Assembly: GCA_949751835.1 (NCBI GenBank)
Contig: CATKHK010000101.1
Location: forward strand, 1-64,000
Source: Blepharisma japonicum
Taxonomy: Eukaryota > Ciliophora > Heterotrichea > Heterotrichida > Blepharismidae
Reading direction: 5' to 3'
DNA length: 64,000 bases
The position numbers and the translations under genes were made by a program. The stretch's first letter is position 1. Each line of letters opens with the position of its first letter. The notes under the pieces were generated by a model, which worked only from the letters and a program-made list of their open reading frames with translations, was not told the origin of the DNA and ran no database searches. Positions 11,882 through 18,782 of the stretch are shown here, piece by piece.

Positions 11882-12748
11882 ATGAATAAAAAACTCAGCA
11901 TAAATGGAAATGATTTCTTTCTAATTGAAAGAGTGAACTCATCTTCATCTCACGCTGAAGACAAACTCAAATGCTCTATCTGTATGAGCCTTATGAATAG
12001 AGAAGAAGGAGAAAGCCACCAATGCAAGTCTCCAATGGCTCAACCACACTTTGCTAATTTTATTCAATCTGATAAGAAAGGTATTTATATTTGCAAGATT
12101 TGTGGGAAAGAGATACATCAGCTCATGGTCAAGCCTCATGCAAACATTCATAATTCAAATAAATCAAAAGAATCACCTATCCCTAATAAGCATGTTGCTA
12201 AAAAATCTGCAGGAGTACAAGAAATTATTGAAAAGGAAGATGTGTTAATAATAAAATCTAAAAACTCGCTAGAACAGAGTAGCTTCAACAGGATGGTAGT
12301 AGAAGGGTCAGCCTTACAGCAAAATATCAGACAAGATTCTATTAATTCGTTAAATATTGCACCGAAAATAATTGAGGAAAATAAAATTGCAAAGAAAAAG
12401 CCAAGTGATGATGGAAGCTTTGAAGAGCGAAAGCCTAATGAAATAATTAGAGAAAGCAAAGAAAAAGAAGCAAATAAATCGCAAAAAAATGATATGAAAT
12501 TAATAAATGATTGTGAAATACAACCACAGAATTCTTTTCTAAGGTCAGATATAAACTTATCTGAAAACCCTAAACTTCCTATAAAAAGACAAAGAAATGC
12601 TACAAAATCTCCGACTCTAAAAATTATCAAGCAAGCTCGACGAATACAAATTATTCTTGAAAGATTAGTTTCAGTTAATAAAAGAATTATATCAGTAGAT
12701 ACTAAAGCTGCATTCAAGAAATTATATAAATTGGCTTTTATTGACTAA
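11882..12748 (+). CDS. Cys/His-rich (zinc-finger-like) protein
   Basis: 288 residues. The N-terminal 85 residues carry two Cys/His clusters. One is CSICMSLMNREEGESHQC. The other is YICKICGKEIHQLMVKPH with HANIH following, which has the C-x2-C...H-x3-H spacing of a C2H2 finger. The rest is Lys/Glu/Ser-rich and probably disordered, ending in a helical basic segment (IKQARRIQIILERLVSVNKR). I know no precise family. Its 3' 540 nt were copied, and have since decayed, at 15057-15600. It converges on the reductase gene 12776-14959 with 27 nt between the stops. Confidence 0.7.
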   Translation: MNKKLSINGNDFFLIERVNSSSSHAEDKLKCSICMSLMNREEGESHQCKSPMAQPHFANFIQSDKKGIYICKICGKEIHQLMVKPHANIHNSNKSKESPIPNKHVAKKSAGVQEIIEKEDVLIIKSKNSLEQSSFNRMVVEGSALQQNIRQDSINSLNIAPKIIEENKIAKKKPSDDGSFEERKPNEIIRESKEKEANKSQKNDMKLINDCEIQPQNSFLRSDINLSENPKLPIKRQRNATKSPTLKIIKQARRIQIILERLVSVNKRIISVDTKAAFKKLYKLAFID

Positions 12749-12775
12749 CTACTTCATAATTTTTTAATTTATTAA

Positions 12776-14959
12776 CTACATTATTACTATTCTTTTTTTT
12801 TCCAAGCCAGATTCCAATAAATTTTCTTCTACAAATCTATTAAATCCAGACGGTCCACATATCCAAGCTCTTTTTGGATTATTTTTCCCTAGCTTCACCA
12901 TAATCTCTGATATATTTTTATTGTCTTTTTCACTGGTAAAAATTAATATAAGCTTAAATATATTTTCATCAAGTGCCTGCTCTGTAGCTTTTAATAAATC
13001 AATAGCAAACGCATCTTTTTGAGACACAAAAGATACATAAAGCATTAATTTAAATTCATGAGGATTTTTTCTATTTTTCCACAAATAATATACTAAATCT
13101 AAAAATGGGATTAATCCAGTACCACCTGCAACAGCAAGAAAGCTGCCAGATAAATTATCAATCCCTAGTCCTGGTCCTAATGGCCCTTTTAATAATAAAG
13201 TATCATTAATATGCAATGCAATCAAATAGTTACTAACAACCCCAAGCGGATATACCTTAAAAATAAATTTTAAGCCTTTTTTCTCTTTATTTATAGGCTC
13301 AATAACTTCATAGCCTTCAGCAAGAATTTCTTGCCTTCATTTGTCTAAATTTACAAAAAAACAGCTATAATACCTAGAAATATTTTTTCTTTTATCCAAA
13401 ATATTAGGAAATGATAAAGGAATCGTCGCTTTAAAATGTTTTCCAAGCCACTCTGCTTTTTCTCAATTTTCATTTATTTCAAATTCATCTGAAGTCATAG
13501 TAATAATAAAATGATTTTCGTTAATTTGATTTTTTTCAATAATTTTTCAGGTCATCAAATTTTGGTTCGAATTTTTTGTGCTGATTAAAAAATTTTTTGG
13601 GTAGGGAATAGTGGCAATAGATAAATGGCCAGCTATTTCTAAGGCTTGAACTGTATGAGTATAAGGGTTGTAATTTTTTTGGCTACTACAGCCTATCATA
13701 TATTTCCCTACATCTTCTCCGATAACGTTTTTTAGCATATTATAGCCGCCTGGATGATCATATTTGAACCAAGTAATATCCAATAACATTTCTTCTAGAA
13801 ATACATATTCTCTGTTTTCTTTGTTGATTTTCTCTCGAACTTCAATATGAGATAATTGCTTATTTCTTTTGAAATAAAAGGATAAAAATTTTCAATAAGG
13901 GCTAATTTGATGTCTGAATTCAAATAGTAAAATTAGCCCAATTACTGCAAACATAAAGCCAAGATATATTTTATTTTGGCTATCATCATATAATTCTCAA
14001 CCAAACTTATTATTTACAAGGGCAGAAATTAATAATCCCCATCCGACCACCTTATGCAATTTCCTTGCATAAGAAATAGAAAACAATTGTTTCGAAAAAA
14101 TTTTTGAAAATAATGCCGCAAGGCCCAAAACCCCTTGCCCTACAACTAAAGATAAAATAATAAGCCCAATTACCATATGAGCTTGATTATCTTGGTCATC
14201 CATTGGCAATATTGGCTCTTCATCTTGATATCTTTTACTTGAATTTCACATAGTCAATCCAATTGTCGCCCCCATTAACAAAAAATGAATAATTAAATAT
14301 CACGGACCCCACCATTTAAAATACCTTGTAAAAATAATTCCAATTGGAACTGCGCAGGTCCACATAACAGTCATAAAGAGTCCATGGGTATACCTATCAT
14401 CATCTTTATTACTTGACACTCCAACAATAACTGGATCATCTGAATTTAATGTGACAATAATGTGAGCTGCTTATTAATTACTTGCAATATCATGCTTAAT
14501 CCATGCCTTTTGACTTTCCGTTGCACAGACCATATCTATGGTTGAATTCTCGACTATTACTGAGTCATATTTATCGCCAGTATCTAAAAGTCGAGAAACA
14601 GTCGCCATAAACCCGTAATCTGTGAAATTAAATGACTCGAGGTAGACGTCATATTTTCCACCTAAAGATTCATCATCTGGAGGAGTACTTTCTGTTAAGG
14701 AATATAAGTCCATTAATGTTAGGGTGTCAGAAGATTGGCTTGAAAGGAGAGCTATCATATCAGTATTATACATATCAGTACCAAAACCGATGCCACATCA
14801 TCCTGCGCTGCACTATATAGATTTTACATTGAAGCTAAATCTTACGCTTGTTTCATTAAATTCAAACCCTATGTCAAGTTTGGAGCATAAATTAACATAG
14901 TTATAGGAAAAAACCAAAATGGGAAGGTATAGGAAAACACCCCTTCTTATCAGATTCAT
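12776..14959 (-). CDS. DOMON-b561-cytochrome b5-flavin reductase fusion, copy 1
   Basis: 717 residues from three exons. A signal peptide (VFLYLPILVFS) precedes a DOMON domain, about residues 25-155, with the GWCGIGFG and TGDKYDSVI motifs. Then comes a b561 core of five TM helices with the haem-ligand histidines H182, H215, H251 and H292. Next is a cytochrome b5 domain (WFKYDHPGG; haem ligands H392 and H425), then a b5-reductase module: RYYSCFF for FAD, GPLGPG, GGTGLIPFL and CGPSGF for NAD(P)H. Electrons would pass from cytosolic NAD(P)H via FAD and b5 haem to the membrane haems and out to the DOMON haem. Likely substrates are Fe(III), Cu(II) or monodehydroascorbate. Several UGA-Trp codons are present. 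Domain calls are strong; the substrate is unknown. Confidence 0.9.
14467..14481 (-). other. 15-nt intron 2 of fusion copy 1
   Basis: On the coding strand GTAATTAATAAGCAG, with two in-frame TAA codons. Removal joins the end of DOMON to the linker before the b561 core (HDIA-THIIVTLN). The same intron is present in copy 2. Confidence 0.9.
14813..14827 (-). other. 15-nt intron 1 of fusion copy 1
   Basis: Coding strand GTAAAATCTATATAG, containing an in-frame TAG. Splicing gives VRFSFNCSAGWCGIGFG, a canonical DOMON motif. Confidence 0.92.
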
Positions 14960-15056
14960 TAAATTTTTATTAAAAATATGAAATTATAATTCTCATTTAT
15001 TGAAAAATGAAATTTTATCAAAATTTTCTCTAATTTAAAGAGTGAGATTAAAAAAT

Positions 15057-15600
15057 CCGAAGGAGTGCAAGAACTATTGAACAGGAAGATGTGCTAATAA
15101 TAAATCTAAAAATCCGCTAGAACAGAATAGCTTTAATAGGATGGTAGTCGAAGGGTCAGCCTTACAGCAAAATATCAGACAAGATTCTATGGATTCGTTA
15201 TATTGCACATAAAATAATTGAGGGAAATAAAATTGCAAAGAAAAAGCCAAATGATGATGGAAGCTTTGAAGAGCGAAAGTCTAATGAAATAATTAGAGAA
15301 AACAAAGAAAAAGAAGCATATAAATCGCACGAAAATGATATAAAAATAATAAATGATCGTGAAATACAACCACAGAGTTCTTTTCTAAGGGCAGATATAA
15401 ATTTATGAAAACCCTAAACTTCCTATAAAAAGTCAAAGAAAGCTACAAAATTTCCAATTCTAAAAATTATCAAATAAAGCTCGTTACGAATACAAATTAT
15501 TCTTGAAAGATTAGTTTCAGTTAATAAAAGAATTATATTGGTAGCTGCTAAAGTTGCATTCAAGAAATTATATAAATTAGCTTTTATTAACTTACTACTT
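15057..15600 (+). pseudogene. decayed 3' copy of the zinc-finger gene
   Basis: Matches 12211-12748, but the first ~105 codons are absent. It has several small deletions (one A lost in the AATAAAATC run near 15103, two bases near 15200, two near 15406), insertions near 15475, and the stop codon has changed. It has no start codon of its own. This is what remains of the gene caught at the edge of the duplicated unit; the reductase in the same unit stayed intact. Confidence 0.85.
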
Positions 15601-15729
15601 CATAATTTTCTATGCTCTTTAGCTTTATATTTTATTTCTCCTTTTTATATTAAATTTCTTCACATCTTTCATTAAAAGTTAAAATAAGAGATTAACTGAA
15701 AATTAATTCATAATCCTATAATCTATTAA

Positions 15730-17910
15730 CTACATTATTACTATTCTTTTTCTGTCCAGCCCAGATTCCAATAAATTTTCTTCTACAAATCTATTAAATC
15801 CAGATGGTCCACATATCCAAGCTCTTTTTGGATTATATTTCCCTAGCTTTACCATAATATCTGGTATATTTTTATTTCCTTTTTCACTGGAAAAAATTAA
15901 TATAAGCTTAAATATATTTTCATCAATTACCTGTTCTGTAGCTTTTAATAAATCAATAGCAAACGCATCTTTTCGGGACCCAAAGGATACATAAAGCATT
16001 AATTTAAATTCATGAGGATTTTCCCTATTTGACCACAAATAATACACTAAATCTAAAAATGGAATTAATCCAGTGCCCCCTGCAACGGCAAGAAAGCTGC
16101 CAGATAAATTATCAATCCCTAGTCCTGGTCCTAATGGTCCTTTTAATAATAAAGTATCATTAATATGTAAATCATTCAAATAGTTACTAACAGTCCCAAG
16201 TGGATATACCTTAAAAATAAATTTTAAACCTTTTTTCTCTTTATTTATAGGCTCACTAATTTCATAGCCTTCAGCAAGAATTTCTTGCCTTCATTTGTCT
16301 AAGTTTACAAAAAAACAGCTATAGTATCTAGAAATATTTTTTCTTTTATCTAAAATATTAGAAAATGATAAAGGCATAATCGCTTTAAAATGTTTTCCAA
16401 GCCACTCTGCTTTTTCTCAATTTTCATTTATTTCAAATTCATCTGAAGTCATAGTAATAATAAAATGATTTTCGTTAATTTGATTTTTTTCAATAATTTT
16501 TCAGGTCATCAAATTTTGGTTCGAATTTTTTGTACTAATTAAAAAATTTTTTGGGTAGGGAATAGTGGCAATAGATAAATGGCCAGCCATTTCTAAGGCT
16601 TGAAGTGTATGAGTATAAGGGTTGTAGTTTTTTTGGCTACTGCAACCTATCATGTATTTCCCTACATCTTCGCCGATAACGTTTTTTAGCATATTATAGC
16701 CGCCTGGATGATCATATTTGAACCAAGTAATATCCAGTAGCAGTTCTTCTAGAAATACATATTCTCTGTTTTCTTTGTTGATTTTTTCTAGAGCTTCAAT
16801 ATGAGATAATTGCTTATTTCTTTTGAAATAAAAGGATAAAAATTTTCAATAAGGGCTAATTTGATGTCTGAATTCAAATAGTAAAATTAGCCCAATTACT
16901 GCAAACATAAAGCCAAGATATATTTTATTTTGGCTATCATCATATAATTCCCAGCCAAATTTATTATTTACAAGGGCAGAAATTAATAATCCCCATCCGA
17001 CTACCTGATGCAATTTCCTTGCATAAGAAATAGAAAATAATTGTTTTGAAAAAATTTTTGAAAAAAATGCTCCAAGACCCAAAACTCCTTCTCCTACAAC
17101 TAAAGATAAAATAATAAGCCCAATTACCATATGAGCTTGATTATCTTGATCGTCCATCGGCAATGTCGGTTGCTCATCTTGATATCTTTTACTTGCACTT
17201 CACATAGTCAATCCAATAGTAGCAGCCATTAACAAAAAATGAATAATTAAATACCATGGACCCCACCATTTAAAATACCTCGTAAAAATAATTCCAATTG
17301 GAACTGCGCAGGTCCACATAACAGTCATAATGAGTCCATGGATATGTCTATCATCGTCGATACTTGACACTCCAGCAACAACTGGAGCATCTGGATTTAA
17401 GGTAACAGTAATATGAGCTGCTTATTAATTACTTTCAATATCATGCTGAATCCATGATTTTTTACTTTCCGTTGCACAGACCATATCTATGGTAGAATTG
17501 GAGACTATTACAGAGTCATATTTATCACCAGTATCTAAAAGTCGAGAAACAGTCGCCATAAATCCGTAATTTGTAAAATTAAATGACTCAAGGTGGACAT
17601 CATTTTTTCCACCTAAAGATTCATCATCTGGGGGAGTATCTTCTGTTAAGGAATATAAATCCATTGCTGTTAGGGTGGCAGAAGATTGGCTTGAAAGGAG
17701 AACTATCATATCAGTATTATACATATCAGAACCAAAGCCAATGCCACATCATCCTGCGCTGCACTATATAGATTTTACATTGAAGCTAAATCTTACGCTT
17801 GTTTGGTTAAATTCAAACCCTATGTCAAGGTTAGAGCATAAGTTAACATAGTTATAGGAAAAAACCAAAATGGGAAGGTATAGGAAAACACCCCTTCTTA
17901 ACAGATTCAT
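15730..17910 (-). CDS. DOMON-b561-cytochrome b5-flavin reductase fusion, copy 2
   Basis: 716 residues, same order as copy 1: signal peptide, DOMON, five-helix b561 core, cytochrome b5, FAD/NAD(P)H reductase. All haem-ligand histidines, the FAD motif RYYSCFF and the pyridine-nucleotide motifs are kept, and both 15-nt introns are present, so the copy looks functional. It differs from copy 1 by scattered substitutions (for example YDVYL/NDVHL and KNRKNP/SNRENP) and one deleted codon in the DOMON-b561 linker. Keeping the whole frame while the neighbouring gene piece decayed suggests selection on both copies, for dosage or for slightly different acceptors (inference). Confidence 0.9.
17418..17432 (-). 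other. 15-nt intron 2 of fusion copy 2
   Basis: Coding strand GTAATTAATAAGCAG, identical to copy 1 although the flanking exon differs. Confidence 0.9.
17764..17778 (-). other. 15-nt intron 1 of fusion copy 2
   Basis: Coding strand GTAAAATCTATATAG, identical to copy 1. Confidence 0.92.
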
Positions 17911-18782
17911 TAAATTTTTTATATACTAATAATAAAAAAATATGAAATTTTAAAAACATTATAATCGAATAATATGAAATTTTTGATCTAATTTGCTTTA
18001 TTTCGTAATTTTCTGATAAACTATTGATCTATAATGAATAATTATAATATTTTTTATTATATCGGAAATTAAAATTAAGGTAAATAGTAATGAGTATTTG
18101 TCTCTTGATGGTATTTAATACTGAAACAACTTTGGTAAGAATTTAAAGCATTGTAATTTCTTTATTAAGAATTTAAAATTCCTTTGTTTTTATTAATAAA
18201 ATAGGCTATTTAAATATGATATTGCACCTTACATGAAAAATTTAATAAGCTAAGTGCACTCTTGCCCGGCCATATTTATCAAAACCTTTCTATGTTTATT
18301 ATTAAACCTTATAAAATACTATTAATCCTGTTATTTGAAATTTATTTTCGTAATAAAGACCGCAACGATAAATGAAATCAATTAATTGTTTTAATAATTT
18401 ATTGATCTTAAGATAAAACATCTATAATTGATACTAAATTATCTTAATCTTAACCAGTTAATAATAAAAGCAGGTGAGAGAGCAAGAGTCACAAAGTGTG
18501 AATTCCTTTTTACTTAAAAGGCCTTTTATATTATGATATTTAGTTCAATCATATTTTATGATTGGATTTGCAAATTATATATAAAATATAAAATCTCAAT
18601 AAAATTGTACCAATTTTAACTATTAATTTGATTATTGTCAAGCACTCTCATTATTCAAAAAATTTGAAAGGATTTTTTAATTATATTAAAAAATTTATAA
18701 GTTCAAACTTTGATGAAGGTTTCCAGTTTGGCGTTTAAATTTCTTTGCTTTACTAAATAAAATTAAGCTTATAGTTGAGTAA
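17911..18782. other. 870-nt divergent spacer
   Basis: Between the starts of fusion copy 2 (minus) and Rictor (plus). AT-rich throughout; I find no open frame, RNA fold or repeat worth naming. Confidence 0.45.

What the first reader, a model, noticed from the sequence alone, without database searches (positions are those of the whole stretch)
12776..17910. Duplicated four-module electron-transfer fusion (DOMON, b561, cytochrome b5, FAD/NAD(P)H reductase)
DOMON-b561 proteins are known, and so are cytochrome b5-reductase fusions. Here one chain of about 717 residues carries both sets with all visible haem ligands (H182, H215, H251, H292 in the membrane core; H392 and H425 in the b5 domain), a DOMON with GWCGIGFG, and FAD and nucleotide motifs. 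It would carry electrons across a membrane without a partner protein. Two intact tandem copies imply the activity matters. Pairing the b561 core with its own reductase removes the need for ascorbate as donor (inference).
Basis: partly seen in the sequence, partly recalled or inferred. Interest (0 to 1): 0.72.

Follow-up and report, generated by a model that had tools for sequence, protein, structure and literature searches.

The report
NAD(P)H-powered transmembrane electron carrier, ciliate
A single-celled ciliate carries about a dozen copies of a gene whose one protein seems to take electrons from cell fuel inside and pass them through a chain of iron groups to the outside, a job other organisms do with differently built proteins.

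Summary
Two tandem minus-strand genes (A 14959-12776, 717 aa; B 17910-15730, 716 aa) read open with TGA as Trp once two 15-nt introns per gene are removed. Each encodes, in order: a likely signal peptide, DOMON, a b561-like core, cytochrome b5 and an FAD/NAD(P)H reductase. The genome holds 11 full-length paralogs, A and B included. Two of the 11 have no intron, so all four modules lie in one unbroken frame, which argues strongly against a splicing artefact. Six histidines of the b561 and b5 modules are invariant in 11 of 11. A/B dN/dS is 0.21, while the gene fragment duplicated alongside has decayed.

Best reading: a CYBDOM (DOMON-b561) with its own reductase. Electrons would run NAD(P)H, FAD, b5, inner haem, outer haem, DOMON haem, external acceptor. 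Every step is inferred from sequence.

The parts are known; the four-module arrangement did not appear in the paper listings I searched, but key older papers were not held and no other ciliate could be searched. A further member has four DOMONs before its b561 core and runs off a contig end. Searches of limited sensitivity detected no NOX/FRE-type reductase, stand-alone b561 or ascorbate-forming oxidase.

The parts
12776..14959 (-). Fusion gene A: 717 aa, TAG stop, two 15-nt introns, TGA read as Trp
14813..14827 (-). Gene A intron 1, 15 nt, GTAAAATCTATATAG, phase 0, just before the C-x-x-x-W-C-G motif of DOMON
   Evidence: a stop-bearing 15-nt GT-AG intron at the same place in 9 of 11 paralogs (A and B included), none in 2
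14467..14481 (-). Gene A intron 2, 15 nt, GTAATTAATAAGCAG
   Evidence: a stop-bearing intron here is also seen in B and in L011
14522..14866 (-). Gene A DOMON domain (aa 32-141), candidate haem ligand M58; the partner H151 lies just downstream
   Evidence: Pfam DOMON 50.9 bits; M58 in 11/11, H151 in 9/11
13895..14401 (-). Gene A b561-like membrane core (about aa 177-345): H182/H251 outer haem, H215/H292 inner haem, fifth helix returning to the cytosol
   Evidence: Pfam B561 19.6 bits, sub-threshold, 8 of 9 members at E<=0.01; invariant His and spacing; weak Dcytb alignment
13580..13849 (-). Gene A cytochrome b5 domain (about aa 361-450): H392-PGG and H425
   Evidence: Pfam Cyt-b5 24.8 bits; 9 of 9 members scanned; PDB cytochrome b5 2ibj
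12779..13558 (-). Gene A FAD/NAD(P)H reductase (about aa 458-717): RYYS, GGTG and CGPSG motifs
   Evidence: Pfam FAD_binding_6 25.1 bits; NADH-cytochrome b5 reductase 2eix E 9e-13 with the family profile
15730..17910 (-). Fusion gene B: 716 aa, same architecture, 656 of 716 aligned residues identical to A
17764..17778 (-). Gene B intron 1, 15 nt
17418..17432 (-). Gene B intron 2, 15 nt
17473..17820 (-). Gene B DOMON domain (aa 31-141)
   Evidence: Pfam DOMON 54.9 bits
16849..17355 (-). Gene B b561-like core (about aa 176-344)
   Evidence: Pfam B561 16.6 bits, sub-threshold; alignment
16534..16803 (-). Gene B cytochrome b5 domain (about aa 360-449)
   Evidence: Pfam Cyt-b5 26.4 bits
15733..16512 (-). 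Gene B FAD/NAD(P)H reductase (about aa 457-716)
   Evidence: Pfam FAD_binding_6 26.2 bits
12199..14968 (.). Duplicated unit 1: 3' part of the neighbouring plus-strand ORF and the whole of gene A
   Evidence: blastn within the window
15049..17919 (.). Duplicated unit 2: decayed copy of that ORF fragment (15049-15612) and gene B (15701-17919)
   Evidence: blastn within the window

Best explanation
A transmembrane oxidoreductase made by fusing a CYBDOM protein (extracytoplasmic DOMON + b561 core) to its own cytosolic electron supply (cytochrome b5 + FAD/NAD(P)H reductase of the NADH-cytochrome b5 reductase kind). NAD(P)H gives two electrons to FAD. Single electrons pass to the b5 haem (H392/H425), the inner b561 haem (H215/H292), the outer b561 haem (H182/H251), the DOMON haem (M58/H151) and then an acceptor outside the cytosol, most likely ferric or cupric ions or chelates. 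Shown by sequence: the four modules in one chain, their order, the invariant His, family-wide conservation and purifying selection on A/B. Inferred: haem and FAD occupancy, topology, direction, donor, acceptor and membrane.
For: Domain matches. Reductase part closest to NADH-cytochrome b5 reductase 2eix (E 9e-13) and b5 part to cytochrome b5 2ibj (E 8e-7). Six His invariant 11/11, with b561 His spacing of 32/33, 36 and 41. H182/H215/H251 align with H50/H86/H120 of human Dcytb, at a weak E of 0.013. In cytb561s the first and third His hold the outer haem and the second and fourth the inner one (PMC10691727, passages). DOMON Met-His pair: the M58-H151 spacing of 93 in A equals Met286-His379 of Drosophila CG8399 in that paper, though it runs from 93 to 112 among the paralogs; CDH-cyt matches the tetra-DOMON paralog at 49.7 bits, cut-off 27. 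N-terminal hydrophobic stretch in the 4 members tested. Intronless single-frame paralogs. HYP1, a DOMON-b561, moves electrons outward and reduces Fe(III)/Cu(II) (PMC10784544, passages).
Against: No transcript, protein, spectrum or activity. A confident fold was not obtained (mean pLDDT 35). B561 and NAD_binding_1 are sub-threshold for A, and for B B561 is sub-threshold and NAD_binding_1 not listed; CDH-cyt scores only 13.1 of 27 on B and is not listed for A; 1 of 9 members reaches E<=0.01 for CDH-cyt. The H392-H425 spacing of 33 exceeds the 24 recalled for cytochrome b5. The DOMON His is absent in L017 (P) and displaced in L019, so not every member need carry that haem. In A, B and L018 the fourth helix scored under my hydropathy threshold. 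No partner gene marks the cargo; Nramp and FTR1 gave 0 matches, though ZIP gave 7.
Confidence: 0.72

Rival explanations
1. The same electron chain, but in an internal membrane (ER, phagosome, cortical sac or pigment granule), feeding a lumenal enzyme or lumenal metal rather than the cell surface.
For: A signal sequence (hydrophobic N-terminus in the 4 members tested) fits any secretory membrane. Other b561 proteins work in internal vesicles (general knowledge).
Against: No retention motif was searched for. The nearest tested DOMON-b561 protein, HYP1, is at the plasma membrane (PMC10784544, passages).
Confidence: 0.17
2. A NOX-like role: electrons go to oxygen to make superoxide or peroxide outside, with DOMON serving to bind sugar or a surface partner.
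For: No Ferric_reduct/NOX-type membrane domain was detected, so such a role would be vacant. Some DOMONs bind sugar (stated in PMC10691727, passages). A has a weak NAD_binding_6 (ferric reductase NAD-binding) match, 16.6 bits against a cut-off of 22.2.
Against: The DOMON Met-His pair is kept in 9 of 11 members; PMC10691727 says the pair is not conserved in sugar-binding DOMONs. Not detecting NOX does not show that its function is needed.
Confidence: 0.08
3. The fusion is not real as one protein: separate transcripts or assembly error join a CYBDOM gene and a b5-reductase gene.
For: No transcript was available here.
Against: The same order in 11 of 11 full-length loci on seven contigs, two with no intron at all; TAA or TAG only at the ends and in the inferred introns.
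Confidence: 0.03

Closest known systems
CYBDOM proteins (plant HYP1 and CRR, animal SDR2/FRRS1, Drosophila CG8399)
   Same: Secreted-side DOMON followed by a b561 core with four haem His; Met-His pair in DOMON; HYP1 reduces Fe(III)/Cu(II) outside the cell (PMC10784544, passages)
   Different: They are described as ascorbate-driven, and the passages I saw name no cytochrome b5 or reductase module; CYBDOMs are said in PMC10691727 to end outside the cell, whereas here a cytosolic C-terminus is needed (HYP1 is modelled with five helices)
NADH-cytochrome b5 reductase and b5/reductase fusions (e.g. cytochrome b5 reductase 4)
   Same: b5 haem module with an FAD/NAD(P)H reductase; best PDB profile hits are of these kinds
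   Different: As I recall, those are not joined to a transmembrane b561 core or a DOMON
NOX/FRE/FRO ferric reductases and STEAP proteins
   Same: Would work like them (their anatomy recalled): NAD(P)H and FAD inside, haems through the membrane, acceptor outside
   Different: Different membrane and flavin domains: Ferric_reduct and FAD_binding_8 are not listed for these proteins, and NAD_binding_6 only weakly for A; functional analogy only
Cellobiose dehydrogenase cytochrome domain and AIR12
   Same: DOMON-fold haem domain; CDH-cyt model passes its cut-off on the tetra-DOMON paralog
   Different: CDH-cyt is sub-threshold on B and not listed for A; as I recall CDH joins its DOMON to a sugar-oxidising flavoprotein; AIR12 is a single DOMON with a GPI anchor (PMC10784544, passages)

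Membership tests
CYBDOM (DOMON-b561) | DOMON domain upstream of the b561 domain | tested here: met
   DOMON over cut-off in A and B, B561 sub-threshold in A and B; B561 over cut-off in 6 of 11 full-length members and in C124
CYBDOM (DOMON-b561) | Four conserved haem-coordinating His in four consecutive helices | tested here: met
   11 of 11, nearly constant spacing; helices by inspection and hydropathy only
CYBDOM (DOMON-b561) | Met-His ligands for a DOMON haem | tested here: inconclusive
   M58 in 11/11; H151 in 9/11, P in L017, Q in L019 with a neighbouring His
CYBDOM (DOMON-b561) | Reduction by cytosolic ascorbate | not testable with these tools
   HYP1 R307-equivalent (-7 from the fourth His) is Arg in 0 of 11; no biochemistry
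CYBDOM (DOMON-b561) | Even number of membrane helices and extracellular C-terminus, as stated for CYBDOMs in PMC10691727 | tested here: inconclusive
   Five helices by inspection and in L015 by hydropathy, four in A and B at my threshold; HYP1 is modelled with five (PMC10784544)
Cytochrome b5 | HPGG motif and a second haem His | tested here: met
   His-Pro 11/11, HPGG in 10 of 11 (HPAG in L017), H425 11/11, but spaced 33-34 residues; Pfam 9 of 9 scanned
Ferredoxin/NADH-cytochrome b5 reductase superfamily | FAD motif RxYS and nucleotide motif GGTG/CGP (motifs recalled) | tested here: met
   YYS and CGPSG 11/11, GTG 11/11 with GGTG in 9; FAD_binding_6 9 of 9 scanned, NAD_binding_1 4 of 9
NOX/FRE ferric reductases | Ferric_reduct (PF01794) membrane domain and FAD_binding_8 | tested here: not met
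   Neither listed for the 9 members scanned at E<=0.01 nor for A and B at E<=1; NAD_binding_6 sub-threshold in A (16.6 of 22.2)

The most novel reading that the evidence does not exclude
A heterotrich ciliate has replaced NOX/FRE-type and ascorbate-driven b561 systems by one expanded family of self-powered CYBDOM reductases. The family includes a member with four tandem haem DOMONs (seven predicted haems if its missing 3' end is like its siblings), and it works with at least eight short DOMON-only proteins that look secreted: in effect a eukaryotic multi-haem route for moving electrons out of the cell.
Probability: 0.28. Interest if true: 0.8.

Novelty: new variant of a known kind. Interest (0 to 1): 0.5.

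Why it matters
CYBDOM proteins are known from plants, animals and algae, and their donor is generally taken to be ascorbate. A natural fusion of a CYBDOM to an NAD(P)H reductase suggests which side is the input and gives a single-chain system for measuring electron flow through b561 and DOMON haems without added ascorbate. It would also be a convergent solution to the task of NOX, FRE and STEAP enzymes, in a lineage where NOX/FRE-type domains were not detected, with bearing on how ciliates reduce iron or copper.

Tried and rejected
Structure prediction of the b561-b5-reductase exon from A and B alone gave mean pLDDT 35 and pTM 0.20; I draw nothing from it.

PDB profile search with the DOMON alone found only one weak match (7b04, nitrite oxidoreductase subunit C, E 0.23), and the tetra-DOMON stretch found none, so the DOMON haem ligands rest on motif, spacing and the CDH-cyt match. 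The search for related loci gave one reductase-only match in Hydrogenophaga and none in viral contigs; by their description these collections hold bacterial, archaeal and viral sequence, so the spread of the architecture in other ciliates is untested.

A third candidate 15-nt intron (14238 in A, 17192 in B) was rejected: it holds no stop in frame and the paralogs keep coding sequence there.

Absence claims are weak. The own-genome search reads six frames exon by exon, and its B561 run missed 5 of the 11 known full-length members, so a stand-alone b561 could be missed too. FAD_binding_8 rang in no control genome, so that zero says nothing. Ferric_reduct, NAD_binding_6, ALO, FTR1 and Nramp gave 0 here and rang in 3, 2, 3, 4 and 7 of 14 controls. 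ZIP (7 matches) shows that multi-helix families can be found here. Finding no Nramp is surprising and makes me cautious about the other zeros. FAD_binding_6 gave 16 places: 10 full-length fusions, the C71 piece and 5 others with better scores, so separate reductases of this class do exist in this genome.

Literature: searches (10 of 10). Nothing in the titles and abstract openings listed points to this four-module fusion, but I opened few papers, and searches listed only 20 of 48, 25 of 28, 20 of 148, 15 of 35 and 15 of 20 papers. I saw passages only of PMC4855317, PMC10784544, PMC10691727, PMC11934334 and PMC9942806. Iyer 2007, Asard 2013 and Verelst 2003 are not held; any of them, or automated domain listings, may already show this architecture. 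The organism name Blepharisma is my inference from UGA=Trp and 15-16 nt introns (PMC9942806, passages).

Changed on checking: the DOMON-only places were re-read, 8 of 8; I had seen 7 of 8 before. The novel-case probability was lowered from 0.30 to 0.28 because the B561 search misses known members.
Full report
What is there. The minus strand of 12776-17910 holds two tandem genes. Read with TGA=Trp, each frame is open except for two in-frame 15-nt GT-AG stretches that carry TAA/TAG. Removing them gives 717 aa (A, 14959-12776) and 716 aa (B, 17910-15730), both ending in TAG. Across the 11 paralogs, 31 of 39 in-frame TGA codons fall in columns where at least one paralog has TGG. UGA=Trp and 15-16 bp introns are reported for Blepharisma stoltei (PMC9942806, passages seen), so the source is probably a Blepharisma or close heterotrich; this is inference. 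The source genome is 45.2 Mb in 224 contigs.

Domains. Pfam on A gives DOMON (aa 32-141, 50.9 bits), Cyt-b5 (366-420, 24.8) and FAD_binding_6 (539-585, 25.1) over cut-off; Cytochrom_B561 (249-310, 19.6 vs 23) and NAD_binding_1 (600-701, 18.9 vs 22) fall just short, and NAD_binding_6 is weak (16.6 vs 22.2). On B, B561 is 16.6, NAD_binding_1 is not listed and CDH-cyt is 13.1 against 27. Scanning 9 of the 11 full-length members one by one: FAD_binding_6 9 of 9, Cyt-b5 9 of 9, DOMON 8 of 9, B561 8 of 9 (best 3e-9), NAD_binding_1 4 of 9, CDH-cyt 1 of 9, at E<=0.01. A family profile finds NADH-cytochrome b5 reductase 2eix (E 9e-13), and the b5 part finds cytochrome b5 2ibj (E 8e-7). The b561 part finds human Dcytb at a weak E of 0.013, with H182, H215 and H251 opposite H50, H86 and H120.

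A family, not a pair. A protein search of the same genome found 11 full-length matches on seven contigs (C101 two, C33 three, C53 two, C18, C21, C6 and C2), A and B among them, 34-49% identical to B over the match for the nine others. Nine of the 11 carry a 15-nt intron at one shared place in DOMON; L015 and L018 carry none, so in these two genes all four modules sit in a single frame broken only by TGA codons.

Conservation. In the alignment of all 11, H182, H215, H251, H292, H392 and H425 are invariant. The spacing of the b561 His is 32 or 33, then 36 and 41, in all 11, although pairwise identity falls to 27%. In cytb561s the first and third His hold the non-cytoplasmic haem and the second and fourth the cytoplasmic one (PMC10691727, passages). 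In HYP1 the pairs are H211-H278 and H245-H314, with M90-H174 proposed in DOMON (PMC10784544, passages). Here the DOMON pair is most likely M58 (11/11) and H151 (9/11). L017 has P, and L019 has Q with a His next to it. The M58-H151 distance in A is 93, equal to Met286-His379 of CG8399 as numbered in PMC10691727, but it runs from 93 to 112 among the paralogs and is 84 in HYP1. The second b5 His lies 33-34 residues after the first, against 24 as I recall for cytochrome b5; an insertion is the simplest explanation.

Topology. The four members tested begin with a hydrophobic stretch. Four His-bearing helices and a fifth after them (aa 320-338 in A) would put DOMON outside and b5-reductase inside. 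Hydropathy at my threshold showed all five only in L015; the H292 helix was missed in A, B and L018. The AlphaFold attempt was unusable (pLDDT 35).

Selection. A and B share 656 of 716 aligned residues; dS 0.196, dN 0.041, ratio 0.21. The duplication also copied part of the neighbouring plus-strand ORF: 12199-12766 against 15049-15612, 90.5% identical with 7 gap openings, while the fusion-gene stretch is 93.2% identical over 2222 bases with a single 3-base gap. The ORF copy has lost its frame and both fusion genes have kept theirs.

Donor. HYP1's modelled ascorbate residues include R307 and N311 (PMC10784544, passages). At the same distances from the fourth His this family has Arg in 0 of 11 (-7) and Arg in 11 of 11 (-3); an invariant Lys lies 9-10 residues before the second His. 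This fits a changed donor side but does not exclude ascorbate. The own-genome search found no ALO-type oxidase, no Ferric_reduct domain and no NAD_binding_6 at E<=0.001. The 7 places matching Cytochrom_B561 lie in the fusion family, so no stand-alone b561 was detected; but the same search missed 5 of the 11 full-length fusions, so this is weak. Nramp and FTR1 also gave none and ZIP gave 7. FAD_binding_6 also lies at 5 places outside the family, so separate reductases of that class exist.

An extended member. At the end of contig C124 a frame holds four DOMONs, a b561 core and the start of b5 before the contig stops. The four DOMONs keep the Met and the His, 96-97 residues apart, and the cellobiose dehydrogenase cytochrome model matches at 49.7 bits against a cut-off of 27. 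A reductase piece of the same kind lies at the end of contig C71. Of the 22 DOMON places in the genome, 10 are full-length fusions, 4 belong to C124 and 8 stand apart. The 8 frames are 187-272 aa from their first Met, begin with a hydrophobic stretch and show only a DOMON by eye; two were scanned with Pfam, one over and one under the DOMON cut-off, and 7 of 8 exceed it. L015's DOMON is not among the 22, although its Met and His are present.

How it most likely works, and what is new. NAD(P)H to FAD to b5 to inner haem to outer haem to DOMON haem to an outside acceptor, probably ferric or cupric. Only the sequence features are shown; every electron step is inferred. The parts are known kinds; the combination as one chain did not appear in the searches listed under Tried and rejected, but most listed papers were not opened and the most relevant older ones were not held. 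I therefore call it a new variant of a known kind. It would work like NOX/FRE/STEAP enzymes but is not a member of those families.

Noticed in passing
G000:C124:102500-107033 (L034): Gene with four tandem DOMONs, each with Met and His, then b561 and the start of b5; runs off the contig end
   Followed up: partly
G000:C71:243668-244168 (L035): FAD/NAD(P)H reductase piece of the same family at a contig end, possibly the 3' end of the C124 gene
   Followed up: partly
G000 C42, C4 (two), C143, C54, C30, C64, C44 (L036-L042): Eight DOMON-only frames of 187-272 aa with hydrophobic N-termini; C44 has a second DOMON-like frame beside it (by eye) and a Ser/Gly-rich tail. Candidate acceptor partners
   Followed up: partly
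window 11882-12748 and 15049-15612: Plus-strand ORF of 288 aa with no Pfam match; its partial copy between the two fusion genes has decayed
   Followed up: partly
L012 and L016 downstream flanks (C53, C33): Both fusion genes are followed by a closely similar PP2C-like phosphatase gene (named by eye), suggesting an older segmental duplication
   Followed up: no
L017 (C21:248009-250186): Paralog whose DOMON has lost the candidate haem His (P) and has Tyr where the others have M63; may not carry the DOMON haem
   Followed up: no
G000 C56, C65, C20 (three places): FAD_binding_6 places outside the fusion family with stronger scores (77-95 bits), probably separate cytochrome b5 reductase-like genes
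   Followed up: no
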